30,111 nucleotides of DNA from a virus: positions 1 to 30,111 of IMG/VR virus record IMGVR_UViG_3300037508_001306. One strand, written 5' to 3'. Positions 5,775 through 29,894 of this stretch are shown here, one piece after another. Both the position numbers and the translations under genes were made by a program. Each line of letters starts with the position of its first letter. The first letter of the stretch is position 1. Below the pieces are notes generated by a model, which saw nothing but the letters and a program-made list of their open reading frames with translations, was not told the DNA's origin and ran no database searches.

Positions 5775-6797
5775 TCAAACACCATAACCAAAATTAAAAC
5801 TCATTGGATTTCCGATGCGGTTATTATCAAGAATTGGAGTTAAAGCATTAAAATTCATTCCTGTATTAAAGCCAGATGCCTGATATGGCTGGGGGCCTCC
5901 GGTTGGAATATTAAAAGAACTTCTAATTCCAGCAACACTGCCTCTTTGCGCCATAGGAGTTCCAAACTGTGGAACCATTGATTGAAATTGTTTTTGGATG
6001 CCAGCAATAGATGAGGGCTGTTGAGATGTATATTCGTTTCTGGCCTGTCTGATTGATTGCGGACTCATTCCTGATTTATAAGCTTCTTGAGTGGCCCCAG
6101 CCAACGCTGCTCTTTCTGCTCTTTTTTGTTTAAAAAATTCTTCCTGTTGCGCGATTTTATTTTGGGCCATTTGCAGGCCTTGTGATCTAATTTGCGCCAA
6201 CAATGCCTGTTGCTGTTGCGGGGATCTAGAGCTTTGCTGATCTATGGAGCGGGGCGCGGCCATATTGGCTTGCTGTTGATCGGTGGCAAAAATTGTTCCA
6301 CGCGGAGTCTGGATGGCGGTTCTTCCCATTTGCCCCGCCGTCTGGGCTCGATTAATTCCCACCGATAGAGCCCCACCCTCAATCGGAATTGAGGTTTGTG
6401 GAGCTAATGCCATGCTATTAAGCGGCTGACGGAAGCTATAACCCTCACCACGAAACCCTCCCCCTCCCGTAAAAGAAGCTGGCTGACCGAAACCGAAGGC
6501 TTGTGCCTGCGGCAGTCCTAAAGATCCAAAGTCTCTTGATCCCATCTCCCTTGATCCAAAAGCGCCACCAGAAAGTCCAAGCGAAGATGGATATGCGGAA
6601 TTTATACCACCAACTCCGATTGTTGCGGGCACCTTGCTGGTAAACCTAGTTGAACCCGCCTTCTGTTCTGATGGTCCGATATTTGAAAAATTAGAAGGAA
6701 AAGCAGAAACGCCCTGCATTCCCAAGCCCCAACCGAATTGGTTGGGCATAACCATTCCTCGCTGGTTTGAAATCCTGTCTTTTTCTTCTTGTGTCAT
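5775..6797 (-). CDS. Gly/Gln/Ser-rich virion-type protein
   Basis: A 340-residue protein of low complexity with no family I recognise. The N-terminal 140 residues are rich in Gly, Phe, Ser and Pro with repeated SRxFGS-like and GFGQP-like stretches. Residues about 185-270 are Gln/Ala/Arg-rich and predicted helical, and the C-terminus is again Gly/Asn/Phe-rich. It starts one base after the stop of the neck-type gene and ends three bases before the next gene, so it belongs to the same operon. Composition and position fit a structural or internal core protein ejected with DNA. It may correspond by position, not by sequence, to T7 gp14 or gp15. Confidence 0.83.
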   Translation of the reverse strand: MTQEEKDRISNQRGMVMPNQFGWGLGMQGVSAFPSNFSNIGPSEQKAGSTRFTSKVPATIGVGGINSAYPSSLGLSGGAFGSREMGSRDFGSLGLPQAQAFGFGQPASFTGGGGFRGEGYSFRQPLNSMALAPQTSIPIEGGALSVGINRAQTAGQMGRTAIQTPRGTIFATDQQQANMAAPRSIDQQSSRSPQQQQALLAQIRSQGLQMAQNKIAQQEEFFKQKRAERAALAGATQEAYKSGMSPQSIRQARNEYTSQQPSSIAGIQKQFQSMVPQFGTPMAQRGSVAGIRSSFNIPTGGPQPYQASGFNTGMNFNALTPILDNNRIGNPMSFNFGYGV

Positions 6798-11475: not shown

Positions 11476-14022
11476 ATGGCCGAAAACCCGCCCCTGAATC
11501 GTATCTATGTCCTTGGCTACTCCGCCAATGATCGCGATTACCCAATTGTAAGCCTAAATGCCGACCCAAGGGTGGCTGGGTACAAGGTTCCTGAAGACCT
11601 CTCAACCTGTCCCGACAAACGCTATCCTAACCATGTATTTACGGGGGCCCAGCCCCTTTCTGGGGATGAACGGGTTCGCCATGTGTGGGAGATTCTTCCC
11701 TCTCCTTGGGTGCCATTTACCCGCTATGATGACGATCTAGGCCCGATTCAGGGTCGGCGCAGAGCGGTTAAAAATGAAGGACAGCAAGCCAGTTTGTCGT
11801 CTGATAAAAAGATATCATATGAAGGGCGGGACGGATCGGCCATTGTTTCTCTAGAAATAGAAGAGATTTGGTCTATAAAGACCGACGAAGATGAAAACTC
11901 TCTATTCCCAATAAAAGATCGGGATTTTTACGATCCAAGACTTGGCGCTGTTAAGGAAAGAAGGCAATTATTTGTTCCGACAGGGGAAGAAAAAGCATCA
12001 ATTGAATTTAATGATCCTGTAGTAACACAGATTGGTTATGAAGCGTACAACGAATATCTATCATACAAGGTAACAACAACTTACACATTAAACGGCCCAG
12101 TTCGCAGAGAGGACGTTTATGATCCAATCAAAGGCCCGATTGAAAGGATTAGTCAGATTGTTTACGATGATGGAAGTCTTGAGGGATCACTTGTTAATAA
12201 CGGCGGAATAATTACTCAGACATCTTATCAGCCCATCAATACTTTGGTTGTTGATAAAATTGTTGAAAAATATTCCGTAAGCGGCCCCCAATTAATCGGG
12301 CAAGCAACTGACAACGAAAAACAACTTGTTACTATAACAACGCAGCGAAAGGCGGCAGATGGATATGTTCCGCCAAATCCAACAGCAATCAAAACAGTTG
12401 AAGTTTCACGCGAAGACGCCGAATCAATAATTGAAAGAATTACTGAAACTCCAGAAATTTTTAGCGCAAAAGTTTTCTCAACAGAGCGCCCAGATCCGAT
12501 ACCAGAAAAGTTCAGGGTTCTTATTCCGTCTACCACAGAACAGTCAAACATAGAAGGAACTGCAACAACTCCTATTTTGTCTTCTGGGCAAATATCCAAA
12601 AGCGAACAGCAAGTAGATAAGTTTGTAAAGCGTATATCATCAACATCAAGAAATCAAACATTACTTCCAAGAACTCTTACACAAAAAACAACTAACAATG
12701 ATTTGCAACTTGCAAATATTACAGAAACGCTTCAAGGCGGAGACACAACAGAGCAACCAACAGCAAAAAAAATCATTCAAAGCGAAGCTCTTGGAGATGG
12801 AAACTATGTAGTAAGAAAAACAGAGATTGATAATGTATTTGACTCTAAGCTTTTGTCGGTTCAAAAAACCGATCCAATACCTGAAAAATTCAGAATTAAT
12901 AGCCCTCTCAATAGAACGGAGGAAACAAAAGAACAAACTACTGTTTCTATTCCAGTTTTAGAAGATAGACAATTTTTAAAATCAGAACAAAGGCTTACGG
13001 CTCACACTGTTCAATCTGTTACACTGCAAAGAGAAGAAAATTACGAAGAAATTAATAATAGAGATCTTGATGAGAGTTGGGGAATTCAACTTCCTTTTGT
13101 AGAATATATATCTTCCACTGTTGTAACTGGATACAATATTGAAGTTGAAGGACTTGGAGATGGAAATTATCTTGTTAGGGAATATAATTTAGATTCTCTT
13201 GAATCAATTCTTGGTGGATTTTCAATTGTAATTCCTTCATCTGCTGATGTTAATACTCCCAGAGTTCTTTCTGATGTTACAATTGCTGGGTGGCAGGAAG
13301 AAAAAAGTTTGGGAGAAAACGAATTTGACTCAAGTGGACTTAAAGGGTCTTTTGATTCTTTGACACAAAGAGACAACGGCTCAATATCCTCAACGCTTTC
13401 GCTGGTTCCAAAAATTGAAATAACATTTAAAGAATACTGGGGAAACAATATTCCAGCAAACATTCACATATTTTTTCTAGAAAAATCAAATCTTAACAGC
13501 GGCTCCATTAATTCTAAAGTTGGAGCAACTGGAAATTGGCCAGTGTTTAAACCAGAATCTTTTATTGCAACAGCTTATGGAGTATCAGAAACAAAAACAA
13601 TTAGTGTCGGAATAAGCAGGGCAATGTCTTTTACTCGCAATGAAGAAATAGGCTATCAGCCAACAACTGAATCTCAGACAGATTATAAAAAATCTTTAAT
13701 TCCTGTTATTATAAACATTCCTCCGTGTTTGCGCTCACAAAAAATTCTTAATTTAACAAATACTCTTAATGCTGACTCTGGAGAAATCAAACTAAACTAT
13801 GAAGGCGTTACTACGTCAACTGGAGAAGAATTTCCTGCTGTAGAAATAATAAAACCCATATCTCACAGCATTTCTATAGACGATCAAATAACAATACCAG
13901 AAACAAATCAACCAGATGTTCCAAAAAACGGGAAATACATAATCAGCACATCCGTAGAGCCTTATAAATTTAATTGGTTTTTGGTCAGGGCTGTTGTTTT
14001 TGATGCTTCTGTTTTTGCTTGA
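11476..14022 (+). CDS. Large repeat-containing virion protein (tail/spike type)
   Basis: An 848-residue protein. The first ~100 residues (NRIYVLGYSANDRDYP..., then RHVWEILPSPWVPFTRYDDDLGP) resemble a phage virion domain with a 'W-x-LP-GPW' block. The rest is beta-rich and Thr/Ser/Glu-rich. Two tandem modules of about 126 residues are visible: DPIPEKFR at residues 340 and 466, KSEQ about 35 residues later in each, and LGDGNY at 439 and 560. The DNA is balanced in base use up to about 11.78 kb and then becomes AT-rich, as if a new module had been joined to a conserved head. No signal peptide or enzyme motif is seen. It starts a three-gene cassette; its stop overlaps a TTG of the next gene. A receptor-binding or fibre role is inferred. 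Confidence 0.85.
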   Translation: MAENPPLNRIYVLGYSANDRDYPIVSLNADPRVAGYKVPEDLSTCPDKRYPNHVFTGAQPLSGDERVRHVWEILPSPWVPFTRYDDDLGPIQGRRRAVKNEGQQASLSSDKKISYEGRDGSAIVSLEIEEIWSIKTDEDENSLFPIKDRDFYDPRLGAVKERRQLFVPTGEEKASIEFNDPVVTQIGYEAYNEYLSYKVTTTYTLNGPVRREDVYDPIKGPIERISQIVYDDGSLEGSLVNNGGIITQTSYQPINTLVVDKIVEKYSVSGPQLIGQATDNEKQLVTITTQRKAADGYVPPNPTAIKTVEVSREDAESIIERITETPEIFSAKVFSTERPDPIPEKFRVLIPSTTEQSNIEGTATTPILSSGQISKSEQQVDKFVKRISSTSRNQTLLPRTLTQKTTNNDLQLANITETLQGGDTTEQPTAKKIIQSEALGDGNYVVRKTEIDNVFDSKLLSVQKTDPIPEKFRINSPLNRTEETKEQTTVSIPVLEDRQFLKSEQRLTAHTVQSVTLQREENYEEINNRDLDESWGIQLPFVEYISSTVVTGYNIEVEGLGDGNYLVREYNLDSLESILGGFSIVIPSSADVNTPRVLSDVTIAGWQEEKSLGENEFDSSGLKGSFDSLTQRDNGSISSTLSLVPKIEITFKEYWGNNIPANIHIFFLEKSNLNSGSINSKVGATGNWPVFKPESFIATAYGVSETKTISVGISRAMSFTRNEEIGYQPTTESQTDYKKSLIPVIINIPPCLRSQKILNLTNTLNADSGEIKLNYEGVTTSTGEEFPAVEIIKPISHSISIDDQITIPETNQPDVPKNGKYIISTSVEPYKFNWFLVRAVVFDASVFA

Positions 14023-14024
14023 TT

Positions 14025-14810
14025 ATGGAATTCAGTTCAAATATTAGAGCAAACGAAGTTGATGCTCGCAATAAGGAAAGGCGAGAACAAAAGGGATTAG
14101 CGTTTTCAATTCTTTCCACACAGTCTGGGCAAGAAGCCCTGTTGCAATCTATGGCAAAGGGTGGGCCGCTTGGACGAAAAATAGCTAGAGAAATAAAAAA
14201 GTTTCAGTCTTCTGGCAGGATTAGTGGATGGTTGGCCGATCAGACAATAAATAGCGCGATACAGTCATCAAGAAACACAAAAACAAACATTGATGAAAAT
14301 GGATCAATCCAAATTGGATCACCCATTAATTTTGAAACAATTGAACCATTCAATGGGCTGCAAAAATTTAAGCCAGAAATACCATCAACAGCCACCGAAT
14401 TAGATTTAAAACCTTGGGATATTTATGTAAAGAAAAAAGAAAATGACACTTATACGCTAAAGGTTAGGGGTGGGACAATCTCTGGAATTCTTCCAGAAAA
14501 TTGGGATGATGAATTTACAGCATCCAAAGATACACTATGCTATGGAATTGTTACCGTAAAAACAGACGGCCAATTCATAAATGGAGCAGAAATAAATGTT
14601 TCAACATCTTTGCCTCAATACTCGCAAACAACTGAAAACTCCGCACCAGATGAGGCAGATTTTGTTTTTGGACTATTTGAAAACGGTATTAACATAAATA
14701 CTTCTGGAGGAAGAGATATTTCTGTTCGTGTTCAAAATGTGTTTGCCACAGAAAGAACTGGCGGTTCGTTTGGAACGCCCGCTTACAATTTATGGTATAG
14801 AATACAATGA
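14025..14810 (+). CDS. Virion-associated protein, middle gene of plus-strand cassette
   Basis: The product is 261 residues from the ATG at 14025; a TTG at 14019 overlapping the upstream stop would add two residues. The N-terminal 80 residues are helical and charged (NEVDARNKERREQKGLAF, then a SGWLADQTINSAI segment), a possible attachment domain. The C-terminal half is a beta domain (WDIYVKKKENDTYTLKVRGG, GYGIVTVKTDG-like strands, and a Ser/Gly-rich end). This two-part layout, with short beta strands of the type gTYTLKVRGGTISG, is common in phage fibre-tip or base components. It is AT-rich like its neighbours. Its TGA overlaps the ATG of the next gene by four bases, implying coupled translation. 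Confidence 0.8.
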   Translation: MEFSSNIRANEVDARNKERREQKGLAFSILSTQSGQEALLQSMAKGGPLGRKIAREIKKFQSSGRISGWLADQTINSAIQSSRNTKTNIDENGSIQIGSPINFETIEPFNGLQKFKPEIPSTATELDLKPWDIYVKKKENDTYTLKVRGGTISGILPENWDDEFTASKDTLCYGIVTVKTDGQFINGAEINVSTSLPQYSQTTENSAPDEADFVFGLFENGININTSGGRDISVRVQNVFATERTGGSFGTPAYNLWYRIQ

Positions 14811-16615
14811 TGATTTGGAGGTCAGCTACGATTCGCGGCGAAATGAATTTTGTCGCCACAAGTTCGTATACTCCAACCTTTCAATCACCAACCCAAGGAG
14901 GGGGCGGCGGAGGAACGACAGATAGCAGAAACGTTACTGGAACAACCTACTCTTACAATACATCAAGGTCATCCTCATGGAGCGGAACAGCAATATCTGG
15001 AGTCGGAACAAACAGGAGCACCATAACAACAACAAATAGCGGAAGCGCCTCTGGATCATCTTCTTTTACGAACCAAAAAACGGTAGTTCGCTACACCTCA
15101 ACAACAAGAACGAGAACAGCAAACTTTGTTTCATATTCTGTTAGAACCCAGTCTTTACAAGCCGTCTATACAACAAAAACAAAATCAACCAATAAATTTG
15201 ACACCATAAATTTTACTTCAACAACTTCTAATGTTCCAACACAGGCAAATTTTACTGAGCCAGTAAACACCACGATCACAATAACGGTGACAGGGGAAAC
15301 AAACTCTGGAACCACTATTGGAAATACACATGATACAATTTATGAATTAAACACTTCAACAAATCCTAACAGGGTTTGGCTGGCGCTTACTACATTTTTG
15401 TACGCAAGCTCTTGGGATAGTCAAGCATTGCAAATAGACGATTATGTAACAACAGCAACAAAATACACAAGATCTGCTGATGTAAAAACAAGAAACGTGT
15501 TTACACAATATGATGATACACCAACATCAAGTCTTTCCGTGCAAGAGTCATCAAGTTCTTTACAATATGAAGACCTTGAATTTGATGAAAGTGACTTAAC
15601 TGCATATTATTTTGGAAATAAATTTCCAAACACTGGCCCAGAAAACGAACAAAGTTTTTTTAGATTTGTAAAATATATATCGACTTTACGGGATACATTT
15701 ATTTTTAATAGAACATATCAGCACAGAGGTAACACAGAACCAATTACAGCGTTTGAATCTGAATATGAAACATTCACAGAGGTATCGCCAAATCCAGTAT
15801 TTACATATAAAGCAATACCCTTTATTCAAAGATTTGCAAACAAGATAAAAAGTTTTGCTTCTACAACAACATTTGCCTCTTTTCCAATTGATACAAATAA
15901 TCAAGTTCAAGCTGGTGGAGCAGGAAACACAACCTACATAAACACCGAACCGTATTTGGGCATAAGGTATCAAACAACAATTAGAGAATTATTTGCATTT
16001 AGTAATTATCTTTTATGCAGCATAGCAAGTCCATTTGGAGCATTTTTAAGTGGACAATTTGGAAAAAATTTTACATTTGATGGCCCAACATTTAACGATG
16101 GAAGTTTTTTTGTTGCTGTGAATAGAGGAACTCAAGAAACGATTTTAGGACTTGGACAGCTTGATTATTTTTTTGGCTATGGTGGAATTTTTTCTCTCAA
16201 CACATCAAGCAACAAAACATGGACACAAAGCGGGCCATCGTTTACATACCGAACTGGAAGCACAACAGAAAGCGCAATAGCTGGAATCGACGGAACAAAA
16301 CACGAAGACGCAATAATTGGAGCTAAATATGTTTTTGGCGGAAAACCAGAAAAAAGCGCCACATTTTATCAAAGACTTTTGCGTGGAGCTTATTTTGATC
16401 AAGATTTTAACTTTTTTACAACAAGCGGCGGATTTACTACTATAAATCCAGAACAAAATGAATCAACAGCAATTTATTTTGATGCTCCATTTATTTGGCT
16501 TCAGGGTTTCAGGGGAGACAGGGATATTGATTATGAACTTGTTGAAATTGAAAATTGCCCAGTTCTTTACAAAGATAATTATAATACATTTATTGATATC
16601 GGCGTAAACCCATGA
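14807..16615 (+). CDS. Thr/Ser-rich virion protein (spike/fibre type)
   Basis: A 602-residue protein, extremely rich in Thr, Ser and Asn. A Gly6 run (near residue 31) follows a short N-terminal segment. Residues 40-180 are almost all T, S, N, R and Y in beta-like alternation (for example TTTNSGSASGSSSF). The C-terminal two thirds are aromatic-rich (many Phe and Tyr) and look like a folded beta domain. It has no catalytic motif, coiled coil or signal peptide. It begins by an ATGA overlap with the preceding gene and ends four bases from the convergent glycosyltransferase gene. The AT-rich composition and surface-type amino-acid use suggest a host-facing virion part; this is inference. Confidence 0.82.
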   Translation: MMIWRSATIRGEMNFVATSSYTPTFQSPTQGGGGGGTTDSRNVTGTTYSYNTSRSSSWSGTAISGVGTNRSTITTTNSGSASGSSSFTNQKTVVRYTSTTRTRTANFVSYSVRTQSLQAVYTTKTKSTNKFDTINFTSTTSNVPTQANFTEPVNTTITITVTGETNSGTTIGNTHDTIYELNTSTNPNRVWLALTTFLYASSWDSQALQIDDYVTTATKYTRSADVKTRNVFTQYDDTPTSSLSVQESSSSLQYEDLEFDESDLTAYYFGNKFPNTGPENEQSFFRFVKYISTLRDTFIFNRTYQHRGNTEPITAFESEYETFTEVSPNPVFTYKAIPFIQRFANKIKSFASTTTFASFPIDTNNQVQAGGAGNTTYINTEPYLGIRYQTTIRELFAFSNYLLCSIASPFGAFLSGQFGKNFTFDGPTFNDGSFFVAVNRGTQETILGLGQLDYFFGYGGIFSLNTSSNKTWTQSGPSFTYRTGSTTESAIAGIDGTKHEDAIIGAKYVFGGKPEKSATFYQRLLRGAYFDQDFNFFTTSGGFTTINPEQNESTAIYFDAPFIWLQGFRGDRDIDYELVEIENCPVLYKDNYNTFIDIGVNP

Positions 16616-16619
16616 TATT

Positions 16620-17654
16620 TTATAAACTATTCCAAGGAACCATGTTGACCCTAAGATGGCCCAAATGCTCATCTTGCGTTTCGTGGTAAGCCCTGTAATG
16701 AATAATTTCTGGATCGCCTTTTGGGGCATCTGCATGTTTTCTTTTAATGTGGTCGCATACCACATGCGGAACACATGCAATCCTGAGTTTTGCTGGATGC
16801 CACCGATTCCAGCATAAGAATAAATCCTGCGTACCCTTACCGTCATATCCCTCAAATGTAGCCAAGGATAGGGCCTTCTGGTTCAATAGGGTGCATCCAA
16901 GCCCACACCAATCGCTTGGCACAATAGATCCTCTTCCAATAGCAGGATAAGCAAAATCCATCCATCCCCGTTTTCTCCATCCATGTTTGGCAATAACCTC
17001 CCAAATGTTTCCGTCTGGAGGGCAAGCTTTAATTTTTTCACGTAACCGCCCCATCCTTTTCATTTCTTTTTCGGCTGTTTTTTTATCTTTGCATTCTTTA
17101 AGTCGGGCTTCACATGCTTTAATTGCACTCTTTAGCCTTTCTGGAACTTTGCGTTCCTCCATTGTAAAATCCTCATTAATCTGCGATTGGGGACTTCCAA
17201 ATCCCCCCAAAAACATTCCGTTGGGATAGGTGACTGCTGCTATATCGTAATACGGGCTTCCATCGGCTTGCGGCATTTGAAGAACCCACTCTGCTACTCG
17301 GAGGCTTTCGGCGCTAACTAGCATATCGCTCTCCACGCTCCACAGCGAGGTAGCCCGAATTTTCCTAGCCAAACTAAACGCCGCTCCCTGAAGGCGGGCA
17401 ATTAACATTTGGCTTTGTTCTTTGTATTTTTCTCCTTCAGAGTCATCAACATCAACATTGATAGATGATATTTTCCAGCCGTCTGGAAGTTCTGTTTGAG
17501 CCAACTCAATGGCATTTTTGGCCTCTTTACTTTTGTCTGTAGCCAAAATAAAGTGGGCCTCTTCATGGTGAGATGCTGCTGCCGCAATATGGCGTAATAC
17601 CGATTGCCAACAATAAAAATACTTTTTGGTGGCGTAAGTGGCTATGGCAATCAT
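16620..17654 (-). CDS. GT-A-type glycosyltransferase
   Basis: A 344-residue protein with a glycosyltransferase layout. It has an N-terminal Rossmann-like strand (MIAIATYATKKYF), an acidic V-E108-S-D110 site in the place of the DxD metal motif, a YPNGMFLGGFGS strand, a long charged helix (about 170-212), and a C-terminal acceptor-side block (SDWCGLGCTLLNQKAL at 247-262, EGYDGKGTQD around 268-277, CDH at 300-302). GT-A enzymes transfer sugar from a nucleotide sugar; the target could be host surface glycan, phage protein or phage DNA. It overlaps the epimerase gene by four bases (ATGA), so the two form a sugar module. It converges with the plus-strand cassette. Confidence 0.75.
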   Translation of the reverse strand: MIAIATYATKKYFYCWQSVLRHIAAAASHHEEAHFILATDKSKEAKNAIELAQTELPDGWKISSINVDVDDSEGEKYKEQSQMLIARLQGAAFSLARKIRATSLWSVESDMLVSAESLRVAEWVLQMPQADGSPYYDIAAVTYPNGMFLGGFGSPQSQINEDFTMEERKVPERLKSAIKACEARLKECKDKKTAEKEMKRMGRLREKIKACPPDGNIWEVIAKHGWRKRGWMDFAYPAIGRGSIVPSDWCGLGCTLLNQKALSLATFEGYDGKGTQDLFLCWNRWHPAKLRIACVPHVVCDHIKRKHADAPKGDPEIIHYRAYHETQDEHLGHLRVNMVPWNSL

Positions 17655-18079
17655 CGTGATTCGGGGTTCCAGTTATAATCAAATTCATAAGGCCCAACCC
17701 TGTCTTCATCAGGGTTCTCAATGTCGTATTGAGTGGACGGCATATTGAGCATGGCGGCTTCGCGGTGACCCCAAGCTGGAGTAAATCCATGCCAAATTCC
17801 AGCAGGAATCGTCACAAGCATAGGAACTGAAGATGATAGAATTATGGTTTGGTTAATTCCAGATTCGCTGTTATATAAACCAAGCCTTGCCGCGCCATTT
17901 ACACAATACCAGCGATCTATTTGCTTTTGATGGCGATGCCAAGCTTTAATTACTCCTTGTGTGCAAGTTGTAATATATGCCTGCCCAAATCCATGGGGAT
18001 CGTCGGTAAGCCTGAATATTTCAGTCAAGCATCCACGATCATCAATATTTACTTTAAGTTGTTTGATTTGTGCTAACAT
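17651..18079 (-). CDS. dTDP-sugar 3,5-epimerase-like cupin (RmlC family)
   Basis: A 142-residue cupin with RmlC-type signatures: D14-R15-G, then GVIKAWHRHQKQIDRWYCVNG around residues 42-62 (H48 and H50 in the active pocket), PAGIWHGF at 92-99, and a closing ENPDEDR at 121-127. RmlC epimerises C3 and C5 of dTDP-4-keto-6-deoxyglucose in rhamnose synthesis. This version is shorter than the usual 180 residues, like archaeal and phage forms, so the exact substrate is uncertain. No other rhamnose-pathway gene is in the window. It lies between the HTH-like gene (7-base overlap) and the glycosyltransferase (4-base overlap). Confidence 0.8.
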   Translation of the reverse strand: MLAQIKQLKVNIDDRGCLTEIFRLTDDPHGFGQAYITTCTQGVIKAWHRHQKQIDRWYCVNGAARLGLYNSESGINQTIILSSSVPMLVTIPAGIWHGFTPAWGHREAAMLNMPSTQYDIENPDEDRVGPYEFDYNWNPESR

Positions 18080-25759: not shown

Positions 25760-28036
25760 TTATACTTGTGTAGCCATCGGGGGTCGGCCTGCGGGCCTAG
25801 CCGTTTTCTCTAGAATAGAACTCCGCGTCTTAAGATCATTAAGAGCCATCTGTTGCCTGATCGTCTCCATCTTCTGTTGATGGGTTTCTTGATTCATCAT
25901 CCGCTTCTCCTGCATCTCGGCTAGTTTAAGTTGGGCCTTCTGGAATTCCATTTCCATCTTGGGATCAATCTGCTGTTGTCCCCCTTCTTGCGGGGCCATA
26001 GCAGCCTCTTGCATTTGGCTCTGTTCGGCCATAGCCCGATTGATTACCTGCTGCTCCAATTCATCAACATAGGCCGTGACGTTCTGAAGCTGGCGTTTAA
26101 GTTCGTTGACCTCTTGCTTGCGGAAGCTGTTGTTTGAGAAGAGAACCAAATGCTCGGTGGTATGGTCGGCTGTGGGACGGAGGATGGCCATAGCCCGCTC
26201 ATCGGGCATCTGCTGTTGGCGATGCATTTCAATAATCTCCGCCATAAGAGGAATGTGGGCTTCGATATGCACAGCATGGTTTTGGCTGTCATGCACCATC
26301 TGTTGAATGCCATTACGAAGGTTGCCGTTTTCAAGGTTGGCAATATCAAAGTCAATTGTACGGCGGGGGCCTTTCTCGGAGACGAAGAGGTTGACCTTCT
26401 GCCAACCCACCCCAGAGATACCAGCGATGACGGAACGAAGGGTGTTCTCTTTGCCCTTTTCGTCCATCAAGGAGTAAAGCTCCATGAGTTGCTTGGAGGC
26501 CATTTCGGTCATTACGGGGCTTCCATCGCCCATGGCGCGGAAGGCTGTGACTTTAAGAAACTGGCGCATCCGCTCAACACTTACTCCTCTACGTAGACAG
26601 CGTTTACGGAATTCTAGGGCTAGGCGTCCACCCTTATCGTTGGCTGTGAGAAGGGGGCTAACTGCTCTACGATACTGCTCGGTCAGAAGTTTGTTATATG
26701 GAGTGTAAAAGAGTTCCAGTGCTGCGGCGTTGAGCGTGGATTCTTGGCGGGCCTGCTGGACAACTTCGGTAGCCGACCTTGCTTGGCCTTCGGGCGTGGT
26801 CTGCCTAGAACGGTAGCTACCTGTATTATTCTGCAACACCTGACTCATCAGGTTGTAAACAGGAAGCCCCTGAGTTGCTACTGCGGGAGGTTGAAGTTGG
26901 ATCGGGGTCAGCCCGCTAGGGATAAATGTATAAGGCCCGACCTCAATGTATTGAAAGTCTTGGATGGCTTCGGCGTCACCCTGCAACTGGATAAGCCCAG
27001 AAGTAATGGCGGCTTGGGCGGCTTGGCACAACACGCGGTTGGAAATCTGAATCTGATTGTAGATCTTCTGCTTGAGCCCGCGAATGGTGTGGAAGGTTCC
27101 TTGTCCCACTCCGTAGGTGAAGATGACGAAGCACTGGTTGACATCTCCATAGCGGCTGTAGCGTTCGTAGAGGAAATCCGAAGAATCCCGACTGCCAATC
27201 AACTGGGTGAACTTGCCGTCAAACTCCTTGTTATAACCATAGACCAATTGTGCTCTATGATATGCAGATTCACCCGCATATAGGTCGTTTTCTTTTATTT
27301 CGCGCTCAAAATCTTCCCAGTGGGCAGTGTAGTTCTTCCACTGATCCCGCTTGGTTGATGCCTTCCAGATGGCTTGCTTGACCGCGTTGAGATTCCAGCC
27401 AAGGGCCTTGGCCGCTTTAGGATTGCGGATGTAGTTGTATAGCTCGCTCACGCTCATGGAGCGTTGGACGATGGCTACTTCGATAGATTCGTCTGAAACT
27501 TTAGTGTCGCGAGCCACTTTAAAGTCCTTGAGTCCGCACGGCTCCCAGAAGATGGAGCGTTCGTCGGGCCACATAGCAACCCCAACTCCATCTCCGACAA
27601 ACTCTCTGGAGAGGAGTTGCATGTTATAAGCGTGGTCGTTCCACTCCTTGAGCATCCAGTCAAACTCTTCAGAGATGATCTCAGAGTCCTCGTTGGAGTC
27701 TCCTTCGTAGGAGTCCATGATGACGTTGGCGATGCGGGGCACCCCGTTTTGGAGTTCAATATAGGGGGCTAGAGCAGCCTCCATAATGGAGTTGGCTTCT
27801 CCAAAGTTGGCATTGACTACGTGGGTAAGTCCCTTGGATTTAAGCTCTTCGGCATCATAGGGTGCTTCGCCGTTGACTAGGGCTTGAGCCCGCGCACGAA
27901 GATACGCCGCATCCTCGTCTTGTTCGATATACTTATTTGCAATGGAAATAAGATTGTCGGAGGATTTGATCCGCTTTTTAGGAGGAGATCCCGCCTCGTT
28001 CAAATTCTCCAGTTCTGCGTTACCGTTAGAAGCCAT
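25760..28036 (-). CDS. Portal protein
   Basis: A 758-residue protein in the position and size range of podovirus portals (P22-type about 725). It has the usual mix: a disordered charged N-terminus, an early helix-rich region with repeated acidic segments (EAALAPYIELQNGVPRIANV, DSEIISEEFDWMLKEWNDH), a beta/alpha middle around GDGVGVAMWPDERSIFWEPCG, a YIEVGPYTFIPSGLTPIQL segment, and a long Gln/Met-rich helical C-terminus (about 645-750), as in the portal barrel. The portal sits at one capsid vertex and passes DNA. The upstream gene is the fibre-like gene, 42 bases away. Confidence 0.88.
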   Translation of the reverse strand: MASNGNAELENLNEAGSPPKKRIKSSDNLISIANKYIEQDEDAAYLRARAQALVNGEAPYDAEELKSKGLTHVVNANFGEANSIMEAALAPYIELQNGVPRIANVIMDSYEGDSNEDSEIISEEFDWMLKEWNDHAYNMQLLSREFVGDGVGVAMWPDERSIFWEPCGLKDFKVARDTKVSDESIEVAIVQRSMSVSELYNYIRNPKAAKALGWNLNAVKQAIWKASTKRDQWKNYTAHWEDFEREIKENDLYAGESAYHRAQLVYGYNKEFDGKFTQLIGSRDSSDFLYERYSRYGDVNQCFVIFTYGVGQGTFHTIRGLKQKIYNQIQISNRVLCQAAQAAITSGLIQLQGDAEAIQDFQYIEVGPYTFIPSGLTPIQLQPPAVATQGLPVYNLMSQVLQNNTGSYRSRQTTPEGQARSATEVVQQARQESTLNAAALELFYTPYNKLLTEQYRRAVSPLLTANDKGGRLALEFRKRCLRRGVSVERMRQFLKVTAFRAMGDGSPVMTEMASKQLMELYSLMDEKGKENTLRSVIAGISGVGWQKVNLFVSEKGPRRTIDFDIANLENGNLRNGIQQMVHDSQNHAVHIEAHIPLMAEIIEMHRQQQMPDERAMAILRPTADHTTEHLVLFSNNSFRKQEVNELKRQLQNVTAYVDELEQQVINRAMAEQSQMQEAAMAPQEGGQQQIDPKMEMEFQKAQLKLAEMQEKRMMNQETHQQKMETIRQQMALNDLKTRSSILEKTARPAGRPPMATQV

Positions 28037-28078: not shown

Positions 28079-29197
28079 CTATTGCGTCCATCCCGTAATG
28101 ATCCCGTTGGATATGGTCACGGAGTTGGTGGTGTAGTTGGTTCCATCGTAGGAGACGAAGGTGCGGTTGGTGGTGATGCCGTTGCCAAGGCCGAGGTTGG
28201 TGCGGGTAGCGTCCGCTGACACATTGGTTCTAAAGATTATTCCATTTGTTCCTAGATCAAGGCTCATCCCGCCAGCAGCACGCACATTGAAGGAATTGTC
28301 ATTAGTGGAAGAGAAGGATATAAGATCAGGTGCATTGACTCCATAATCGGCAAAAACAAATGACCCAAAATGAACCGCTTTTGCTGCCGTTCCAGCAGCT
28401 ATAGAGTAGTTGGCCGTTACTTCATTACTTCTTCCACCCAAAACGACTGACAGCCCTCCGCTCACTGCGTGATCACGCCCACCAACAATTACAGAAAAAT
28501 TACCATTACCCGATACAGTGTTATTTGGGCCTGAACCAATAATAGCGGAACCAACACCGCCAGCCACATTTGTTAGCCATGTGGCTCCAAGGCCGAGGTT
28601 AGTGCGGGTGATGGCGGCTCCGTTGGTGTTGCTTGCGCCAAAGGCAATACCTAAACCAGACTCCTCAAGCCTCATGCCAACACTACCAATAAAACTAATT
28701 CTTTGGGAATTTCCCTGCCAACCAATCGCAGCGCCACCTCCTGATGTAGATTGAGAAAATCTTGCCCCAGCAGTGCCAACAGAAATTCCGTTTGTACCAG
28801 TTGTAATTGTATCAAATGTTGGAGAACTATTTGTTCCAACTCCTAAATCATTAAGAAAATTTGCGTTATTTGTATTTGTTAGAACTGGCAAACCAAGACC
28901 GAGGTTGGCGCGGGTGAAAGAGGCTGCGTCAGAGTTTGTGGCATTAAATCGAATCTCTTGGTTAAACCTAAAATAGCTATCAATATAAGTTTCGCCTTCA
29001 CTCTGGATTGTTACCCCATCGTCTATCTTCACATCCGCGCTTAACCAAATGCTATTCGTGAACGTCAAAAAGTTGGTTCCCGTATTGGCGACTACTTGGC
29101 CATTGGCCGTATTAAATCCAAGCGTTTTGATGGTCTGCCCGTAGACCCCGACCCCCAAAATCCCGAATAAAAGTGTAAGTGCTAGTTTCTTCATCAT
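28079..29197 (-). CDS. Secreted-type fibre/adhesin-like protein
   Basis: A 372-residue protein with a typical cleavable signal peptide (Lys residues, then a hydrophobic core about 5-18, then VYGQT with likely cleavage near 20-21). The body contains NLGLG repeat units at residues 98, 200 and 334, each after a T-R-[TA] triplet, and a YadA-like trimeric head region (about 215-285: G-S-A-I-I-G-S-type repeats with GGRxxxVSGG and FGSFVFAD). An NSFNVRAAGG strand near 301-310 is also typical of bacterial trimeric adhesins. A phage virion gene with a signal peptide is unusual. It could be a fibre acquired from a host adhesin, or a surface protein made by infected cells. Confidence 0.75.
   Translation of the reverse strand: MMKKLALTLLFGILGVGVYGQTIKTLGFNTANGQVVANTGTNFLTFTNSIWLSADVKIDDGVTIQSEGETYIDSYFRFNQEIRFNATNSDAASFTRANLGLGLPVLTNTNNANFLNDLGVGTNSSPTFDTITTGTNGISVGTAGARFSQSTSGGGAAIGWQGNSQRISFIGSVGMRLEESGLGIAFGASNTNGAAITRTNLGLGATWLTNVAGGVGSAIIGSGPNNTVSGNGNFSVIVGGRDHAVSGGLSVVLGGRSNEVTANYSIAAGTAAKAVHFGSFVFADYGVNAPDLISFSSTNDNSFNVRAAGGMSLDLGTNGIIFRTNVSADATRTNLGLGNGITTNRTFVSYDGTNYTTNSVTISNGIITGWTQ
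28185..28915 (-). repeat. Three 23-bp dispersed repeats in fibre-like gene
   Basis: CCAAGGCCGAGGTTGGTGCG (then GGT) at 28185-28207 recurs at 28587-28609 and 28893-28915 with one to three changes. They encode the TRTNLGLG/TRANLGLG units. Near-identical DNA in an otherwise diverged gene suggests recent duplication or homologous exchange between modules. Confidence 0.75.
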
Positions 29198-29409
29198 GGT
29201 AATACCTCTGTTAGCGGGGTTCCGTCTGTGTCTACTCTGAGTCGGCGTCTGACCCCGTTGGAATCCCGCAAGATAATCCCCTTGGCCGCACTAGTGATCT
29301 CAATGTCATCCGATCCCACCTTGAAGGCAGCATCGTCTCCCTCCGCATAGGTTCCTGCGGTGGTTCCTGCCACTACGGGCTGGGGATAATATGCTGATAG
29401 GAATGCCAT
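29194..29409 (-). CDS. Small virion-associated protein
   Basis: A 71-residue protein with a C-terminal motif GIILRDSNGVRRRLRVDTDGTPL, the 'GIIL-SPNG-x-R-x-x-V-D-x-x-G' strand pair that recurs in short phage tail or structural proteins. The N-terminal half (MAFLSAYYPQPVV) is hydrophobic and aromatic. It ends by an ATGA overlap with the fibre-like gene, suggesting coupled translation and a related role. Confidence 0.7.
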   Translation of the reverse strand: MAFLSAYYPQPVVAGTTAGTYAEGDDAAFKVGSDDIEITSAAKGIILRDSNGVRRRLRVDTDGTPLTEVLP

Positions 29410-29894
29410 TATGTTTCGGGGTTCGGGGTGGATAGATCAGCCACAGCCTCCGCACTCGCCTCTTCAAACGATGCCGCAGGGATTCCAAAGCTGGCCGCAG
29501 GTGCAGCGACAGGATTCATCGCCCAGCCCAGCATCACGGCCTCCAGCCAGTTCTTCGCGGCGGTCATTTTTACGCCGAGCGGCTTGCCTGCTTGGAGAAG
29601 GGCCATTTCAAAACGCTGGAGGGCGGCGATTTGGTAGGCGCTAAAATACTGCGAGACGATTTGCTCTGCGGTATAGATAAGATCGGTGACCGCCCAAGTG
29701 CGCGTCACAGTCTGCGCTTCCACATTGACGGAATCCGATTGAGTGAGCACTTGGGTTTCGGAGTTGTAAGCAGGCGGTTCGCTTTCCACCACAGTCATCT
29801 CCAAAAGCTCTGGAGCAAGACCGACAATCGGCTCCTCATCAATGCGCGGCCACGGAAGGACTTGTTCTGTTTGGGTATTGTAGAGAAGTTTCAT
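29409..29894 (-). CDS. Conserved-type hypothetical protein, fibre-associated
   Basis: A 161-residue acidic protein. Residues 70-125 (RTWAVTDLIYTAEQIVSQYF, AYQIAALQRFEMALLQAGKPLG, KMTAAKNWLEAVML) form a helical core of a type often encoded next to phage fibre genes, where it may be a chaperone or capsid accessory; I cannot confirm a family. The C-terminal 30 residues are Ala-rich. Its stop overlaps the next gene's start by one base (TAATG). Confidence 0.65.
   Translation of the reverse strand: MKLLYNTQTEQVLPWPRIDEEPIVGLAPELLEMTVVESEPPAYNSETQVLTQSDSVNVEAQTVTRTWAVTDLIYTAEQIVSQYFSAYQIAALQRFEMALLQAGKPLGVKMTAAKNWLEAVMLGWAMNPVAAPAASFGIPAASFEEASAEAVADLSTPNPET

What the first reader, a model, noticed from the sequence alone, without database searches (positions are those of the whole stretch)
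28079..29197. Phage fibre-like protein with a signal peptide and trimeric-adhesin repeats
A cleavable signal peptide is not expected on a virion protein assembled in the cytoplasm. The body resembles host trimeric adhesins. It could be a host gene captured for display or a superinfection or attachment factor made by infected cells.
Basis: partly seen in the sequence, partly recalled or inferred. Interest (0 to 1): 0.65.

Follow-up and report, generated by a model that had tools for sequence, protein, structure and literature searches.

The report
Exported fibre gene of uncultured phages
This phage gene encodes a fibre of the sort viruses use to grip bacteria, but it starts with a tag that should send it out of the infected cell's cytoplasm, and related phages keep that tag while swapping the fibre's middle, so part of these phages' gripping equipment may be made outside the compartment where virus particles assemble.

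Summary
The gene lies on the minus strand (28079-29197, 372 aa) and starts MMKKLALTLLFGILGVGVYG|QTIK, a textbook Sec/SPase I signal peptide by rule-based scoring; SignalP was not available. It is not an isolated oddity. Every complete relative keeps a signal peptide, and a second, larger fibre in the same phages has one too. Over 57 distinct signal peptides the letters drift while the mature N-terminus stays conserved. The body is modular: 5' and 3' ends are shared and the middle is exchanged as a cassette. The same signal-peptide-plus-motif N-terminus occurs on fibres of unrelated prophages in Verrucomicrobiota genomes; one carries a Phage Tail Collar domain (PF07484, E=2e-19). "Host gene captured" is not supported; this is a phage fibre family inside the structural module. 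Export by Sec is very likely. Whether the exported fibre joins virions at lysis (slightly favoured) or works off the virion (receptor masking, attachment) is unresolved and needs virion proteomics. I found no published description, though the paper search was limited. The host is probably Verrucomicrobiota, but Gln at +1 in 65 of 70 signal-peptide/mature pairs would also fit Bacteroidota.

The parts
28079..29197 (-). 372-aa signal-peptide fibre gene (P0001)
   Evidence: ORF; relatives
29138..29197 (-). Signal peptide MMKKLALTLLFGILGVGVYG (aa 1-20), predicted SPase I cut before Q21
   Evidence: rule-based scan; conserved in all complete relatives; a wholly different signal peptide in front of a very similar mature N-terminus in L056
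29090..29137 (-). Conserved mature N-terminus (aa 21-36, QTIKTLGFNTANGQVV); end of the 5' conserved DNA block
28208..29089 (-). Exchangeable middle (aa ~37-330), not homologous at DNA level between relatives
   Evidence: blastn homology stops near codon 36 and resumes ~128 nt before the end
28238..28564 (-). Beta-roll / trimeric-adhesin-head-like stretch (aa ~212-320)
   Evidence: LbR_Ice_bind E=0.0011, below cut-off; similarity to P8625 gp22
28082..28219 (-). Conserved C-terminal cap (aa 327-372, ..TNRTFVSYDGTNYTTNSVTISNGIITGWTQ)
   Evidence: only well-modelled part
29194..29409 (-). 71-aa protein overlapping the fibre start by ATGA; its N-terminus is that of signal-peptide-less tailspike-like proteins that occupy the same slot in relatives
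29409..29894 (-). 161-aa gene of unknown function, same operon
   Evidence: no family match
25760..28036 (-). Portal-like protein (758 aa) downstream of the fibre; named from gene order and a prophage relative, no Pfam/PHROG match

Best explanation
A phage-encoded fibre that the infected cell exports. The late operon makes a precursor whose signal peptide takes it through the Sec channel; signal peptidase I cuts after Gly20 (inferred); the fibre, probably a trimer (inferred), folds in the periplasm. Its middle is swapped between relatives as a receptor-binding or adhesive cassette between fixed ends. The most likely end point is that the fibre meets and joins virions when the cell lyses, perhaps through adaptor proteins such as the LtfC-like gene near the sister fibre. 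Shown here: the family, the signal peptide by sequence, its conservation, cassette exchange, structural-module location. Inferred: export, cleavage, trimerisation, virion joining. My probability for export is about 0.85, and for export followed by virion joining about 0.45 (the figure given below).
For: Signal peptide in every complete relative. 42 of 56 fibre-like ORFs upstream of the portal score as signal peptides, against 7 of 239 other upstream ORFs and 17 of 367 downstream ORFs, all 17 holin-like; most of the 14 exceptions are cut by contig ends or have a leader the rule missed. Letters of the signal peptide drift while the mature N-terminus is held: 25% against 76% identity (L005/L056), 24-56% against 68-91% for differing pairs in another family, dN/dS-type ratio 0.42 against 0.04. 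Structural location. LtfC-like gene two genes upstream of the sister fibre, phrog_3304 'L-shaped tail fiber protein assembly', E=7e-8. A signal-peptide fibre with a tail collar domain in a Mu-like prophage. The slot is otherwise filled by tailspike-like proteins without a signal peptide.
Against: No SignalP, no proteomics. The same phages also carry a signal-peptide-less collagen-type fibre that matches PHROG tail fibres, so the virion does not obviously need the exported ones. No tailed-phage virion fibre known to me carries a cleaved signal peptide. The cultured verrucophage P8625 has no signal peptides. The outgroup L083 and prophage G192 lack the whole block between terminase and portal, so it is accessory there.
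Confidence: 0.45

Rival explanations
1. Exported but never part of the virion: the fibre coats the infected cell or enters the medium, masks the phage's own receptor (superinfection exclusion, fewer virions lost on debris) or sticks cells together.
For: All evidence for export. A separate signal-peptide-less virion-type fibre exists in the same phages. The fibre block is absent from the nearest outgroups. P. gingivalis phages carry signal-peptide proteins of unknown function proposed to modify the host surface (PMC10367356).
Against: Place in the structural operon, exchange with tailspike-like proteins in the same slot, LtfC-like gene nearby, collar-domain relative. No surface anchor found. 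The exported fibres' C-terminal caps were not found on signal-peptide-less fibres, so masking of the same receptor is not indicated.
Confidence: 0.35
2. The hydrophobic N-terminus is not cut by signal peptidase: it is a membrane anchor, a virion-attachment peptide, or is trimmed by a phage protease.
For: Signal-peptide-like N-termini of phage capsid proteins are thought to be cut by prohead protease in P. gingivalis phages (PMC10367356). Cleavage cannot be shown from sequence.
Against: Small residue at -1 (partly imposed by my rule), aromatic at -2 in most, Gln at +1 in 65 of 70, and lengths mostly of 15-21 residues fit SPase I substrates. The leader's letters drift as cleaved leaders do.
Confidence: 0.12
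3. A host trimeric adhesin captured by the phage.
For: Signal peptide and beta-roll stretch; one faintly related signal-peptide protein lies in a host glycan cluster (L191, motif E=0.04).
Against: No YadA anchor or any host family match. The one hit of an 84,980-species scan with the sister N-terminus is a prophage. At least four of eight Verrucomicrobiota genomes with the motif carry it among phage head or tail genes, a fifth by eye.
Confidence: 0.05

Closest known systems
Phage tail collar fibre / tail fibre families (PF07484; phrog_523)
   Same: Fibre repeats, structural-module location; a relative with the same signal-peptide-plus-motif N-terminus carries the collar domain
   Different: Known members are made in the cytoplasm without a signal peptide; P0001 itself matches no named tail family
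Tail fibre gp22 of Verrucomicrobia phage P8625 (NC_029047)
   Same: YadA-head-like beta-roll followed by TRSNLG
   Different: No signal peptide (also none reported in the genome paper, PMC4642752)
Trimeric autotransporter adhesins (YadA/Hia, type Vc)
   Same: Sec signal peptide, repetitive beta-roll-like head
   Different: No C-terminal membrane anchor; short soluble-looking C-terminal cap
Signal-peptide proteins of Porphyromonas gingivalis phages (PMC10367356)
   Same: Phage-encoded, Gln at +1
   Different: Described as genes of unknown function, not as fibres
Phage receptor-masking / superinfection-exclusion proteins such as T5 Llp (from memory)
   Same: Phage-encoded, exported
   Different: Small lipoprotein, not a fibre; no sequence link tested

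Membership tests
Sec/SPase I substrate | Positive n-region, hydrophobic core, small residues at -3/-1 | tested here: met
   (rule-based, not SignalP)
Sec/SPase I substrate | Leader kept through divergence in homologues | tested here: met
   101 of 112 motif-bearing ORFs by rule; the 11 others have a leader visible by eye or are cut by contig ends
Sec/SPase I substrate | Actual export and cleavage | not testable with these tools
   needs expression or N-terminal sequencing
Lipoprotein (SPase II substrate) | Lipobox with Cys | tested here: not met
   no Cys in P0001; one relative (MKTAITLLILLVGC..) is ambiguous
Phage tail fibre / receptor-binding protein | Fibre repeats and gene in the structural module | tested here: met
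Phage tail fibre / receptor-binding protein | Match to a named tail-fibre family | tested here: not met
   P0001 matches none; relative L195 matches phrog_523 and PF07484
Phage tail fibre / receptor-binding protein | Present in virions | not testable with these tools
   needs virion proteomics
Trimeric autotransporter adhesin (type Vc) | C-terminal YadA-type beta-barrel anchor | tested here: not met
   no Pfam match; C-terminus is a short helix plus beta-strands
Trimeric autotransporter adhesin (type Vc) | Head repeats | tested here: inconclusive
   sub-threshold beta-roll match only
Superinfection-exclusion protein | Blocks adsorption or entry of related phage | not testable with these tools
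   needs an assay

The most novel reading that the evidence does not exclude
A class of tailed phages divides virion maturation between two compartments: heads form in the cytoplasm while receptor-binding fibres go through Sec and signal peptidase I and are mounted on the virion at or after lysis, with leaders tuned to the host's cleavage preference.
Probability: 0.35. Interest if true: 0.9.

Novelty: new variant of a known kind. Interest (0 to 1): 0.62.

Why it matters
Tailed-phage fibres are taken to be made and mounted in the cytoplasm. A recurring, selected Sec signal peptide on fibres across podovirus-like phages and Mu-like prophages breaks that rule, or else reveals a widespread set of secreted fibre-like effectors. 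Either way it gives testable targets in the poorly known phages of Verrucomicrobiota, and it warns that 'tail fibre' genes in metagenomes may encode secreted proteins.

Tried and rejected
Mis-annotated start: rejected, since the ATG has a ribosome-binding site and the frame upstream of it is not that of the preceding gene. Lone chance: rejected by the relatives. Cultured-phage relatives: none for P0001, the portal, the sister fibre's N-terminus or the beta-roll. PDB by sequence: nothing. AlphaFold model too poor for a fold search, so none was run. The N-terminal motif as a dedicated virion adaptor: not accepted, because it also recurs inside fibres without a leader. Homology of the motif to the N-terminus of P8625 gp22: looked tempting, no HMM hit at E<1. 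Host from Gln at +1: sampled Verrucomicrobiota leaders give 7 of 50 with Gln, while the Q-rule is described for Bacteroidetes (PMC5837995), so the host is left open.

Full report
WHAT IS THERE. The window is a 30,111-base virus record. The gene at 28079-29197 is on the minus strand, 372 aa, ATGATG start after AGAGG, and overlaps the upstream 71-aa gene by ATGA. It reads MMKKLALTLLFGILGVGVYG|QTIKTLGFNT..., followed by fibre-type TRxNLGLG repeats, a beta-roll-like stretch (about residues 212-320) and a short C-terminal cap. No Pfam family matches; PHROG gives only an unnamed family at E=0.006. A longer contig carrying the identical fibre and portal genes (L002, 35,987 bases) shows what lies beyond the window's end: terminase, an LtfC-like gene, a 107-aa gene, a large fibre (called SPF1 here), another small gene of the same look, a collagen-type fibre, three small genes, this fibre, portal, scaffold-like gene and major-capsid-like gene. 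The names portal, scaffold and capsid rest on order, length and composition, not on family matches.

THE SIGNAL PEPTIDE. I had no SignalP, so I wrote a rule (charge, hydrophobic core, -3/-1 residues). It recognises 7 of 8 classical E. coli leaders, missing PhoA because of its Lys at -2. It scores P0001 at 4.98; the only other strong window hit is a holin-like protein. Shuffles pass 1.2% (whole protein) and 6.8% (first 45 residues) of the time, so the single case is suggestive, not proof. The weight comes from relatives. All complete relatives among 16 loci keep a leader. Among loci with a related portal, 42 of 56 fibre-like ORFs upstream of the portal score as leaders, against 7 of 239 other upstream ORFs and 17 of 367 downstream ones, all 17 being the holin-like gene; of the 14 fibre-like ORFs without a score, 6 start at contig ends, 4 have a leader the rule missed, and 4 are truly leaderless, 3 of them collagen-type. 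An HMM of the mature N-terminal motif finds 112 ORFs; 101 score, and the other 11 are contig-cut or have a leader visible by eye (GTG starts and the like). SPF1 itself starts MKYILSLIISGALVVSGFG|QTRNVLVGTNNAVVQPTNFW.

SELECTION ON A LEADER. The leader's letters drift while the mature N-terminus does not. In SPF1 the dN/dS-type ratio is 0.42 for the leader and 0.04 for the next 34 codons (63 distinct sequences). L056 carries MIKHLIAILLTTSAAYS|QTIKTLGYNTTNGKVAYSGSNT: leader 25% identical but mature start 76% identical to the P0001-type of L005. Over 57 distinct leaders, -1 is Gly, Ala or Ser (partly imposed by the rule), -2 is mostly aromatic and +1 is Gln in 65 of 70 leader/mature pairs, the last not required by the rule. 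These sequences are related to one another, so the counts are not independent events, but the mature starts QTIK, QTRN, QTNxR, QRQ, QVSR, QISR, QLVP, QNNT and QTIT are distinct.

A CASSETTE. DNA homology between P0001 and its relatives covers the upstream genes and the first ~107 nt of the gene, stops, and resumes ~128 nt before its end; the roughly 880-nt middle is exchanged, with proteins of 168-375 aa sharing both ends. The whole slot upstream of the portal is also exchanged: other occupants are different leader-bearing fibres, a ~130-aa leader-bearing protein, and leaderless tailspike-like proteins (for example L054, pectate-lyase-like, E=2e-10) whose N-terminus MAxLSAYYPxPVVAGTTAGTYAEG is that of the 71-aa gene next to P0001. 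So the slot looks like a place for receptor-binding proteins.

THE SAME THING IN OTHER PHAGES. A scan of one genome for each of 84,980 species with the SPF1 N-terminus confirmed one relative: two leader-bearing fibres after a tape measure and a tail-tip-like protein in a prophage flanked by host genes in a Verrucomicrobia MAG. An HMM search of 388 Verrucomicrobiota genomes hit 8; at least four are phage regions with phrog_1005 major head proteins or tape measures. In the Mu-like prophage of G140 (transposase phrog_310) the leader-bearing fibre carries a Phage Tail Collar domain (PF07484 E=2.3e-19, phrog_523 E=1.6e-28). The next gene there (668 aa, collagen-type, weak tail-fibre matches) has a hydrophobic N-terminal stretch that my rule does not score; I saw no further tail-fibre candidate before the host genes resume. 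Four of the five leaders checked by eye in these prophages have Ala, not Gln, at +1 (L097 twice, L190, L194; L196 has Gln).

HOW IT MOST LIKELY WORKS. Export by Sec is the simplest reading of a leader kept through such divergence (about 0.85). Beyond that I prefer that the fibre joins virions at lysis: it sits in the structural operon, shares a slot with tailspike-like proteins, its sister gene lies near an LtfC-like gene (phrog_3304, E=7e-8), and a related protein is a true collar fibre. The off-virion reading is nearly as good: the phages also make a leaderless collagen-type fibre with strong PHROG tail-fibre matches, and the closest outgroups have terminase directly next to portal without this block. 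P0001 has no Cys, so disulfide formation is not the reason for export. A caution from the literature: leader-like N-termini of phage capsid proteins are thought to be cut by prohead protease (PMC10367356).

HOST. A distant portal relative (22%, E=1e-30) is in a Verrucomicrobiota prophage, and the fibre relatives are in Verrucomicrobiota, but only that phylum could be searched in depth. Gln at +1 is the Bacteroidetes rule (PMC5837995); sampled Verrucomicrobiota leaders have it in 7 of 50. I favour Verrucomicrobiota without certainty.

KNOWN OR NEW. Paper searches found no description of tail fibres with Sec leaders; the library lacks most subscription journals and preprints. The only cultured verrucophage I examined, P8625, has none. 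[quoted passage not shown] I rate it a new variant of a known kind.

Noticed in passing
L002:2937-5714 and about 80 further loci (L098-L177): A second, larger fibre (about 530-1,660 aa) with its own signal peptide, MKYILSLIISGALVVSGFG|QTRNVLV..., sits after terminase and an LtfC-like gene in these phages; the window is cut before it.
   Followed up: yes
L025:6669-7058, L073:8287-8706, L019:6960-7421: A ~130-aa signal-peptide protein (..A|QLVPQTQLEQDL..) of unknown function is found in the fibre region, in several phages directly in the slot upstream of the portal.
   Followed up: partly
L022:7575-9959, L029:8628-9962: Other occupants of the same slot carry a GDSGSP motif like trypsin-type serine proteases, one of them fused to the tailspike-type N-terminus; Pfam does not recognise them.
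   Followed up: partly
window 17651-18079 (-) and 16620-17654 (-): A gene matching a polysaccharide-biosynthesis domain (PF14667, E=8e-10; FdtA-like sub-threshold) beside a gene that by eye may be a glycosyltransferase, within the late region; might alter host surface glycans.
   Followed up: partly
window 11476-16615 (+): Three large genes (848, 263, 602 aa) on the opposite strand without any PHROG match; GC drops to 37-40% against 48-53% around them, suggesting recent acquisition.
   Followed up: no
window 5775-6797 (-): Weak, sub-threshold match to T7 gp14 internal virion protein (E=0.008), in line with a podovirus-like particle.
   Followed up: no
L202/L203 (G192:C3:98000-136000) and L083: Verrucomicrobiota prophage with a distant portal relative, where terminase is directly next to portal; same in L083, so the fibre block is probably an insertion in the window's lineage.
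   Followed up: yes
L191:5685-8498: A host-context signal-peptide protein with beta-helix domains in a glycan gene cluster whose N-terminus faintly resembles the phage motif (E=0.04).
   Followed up: partly
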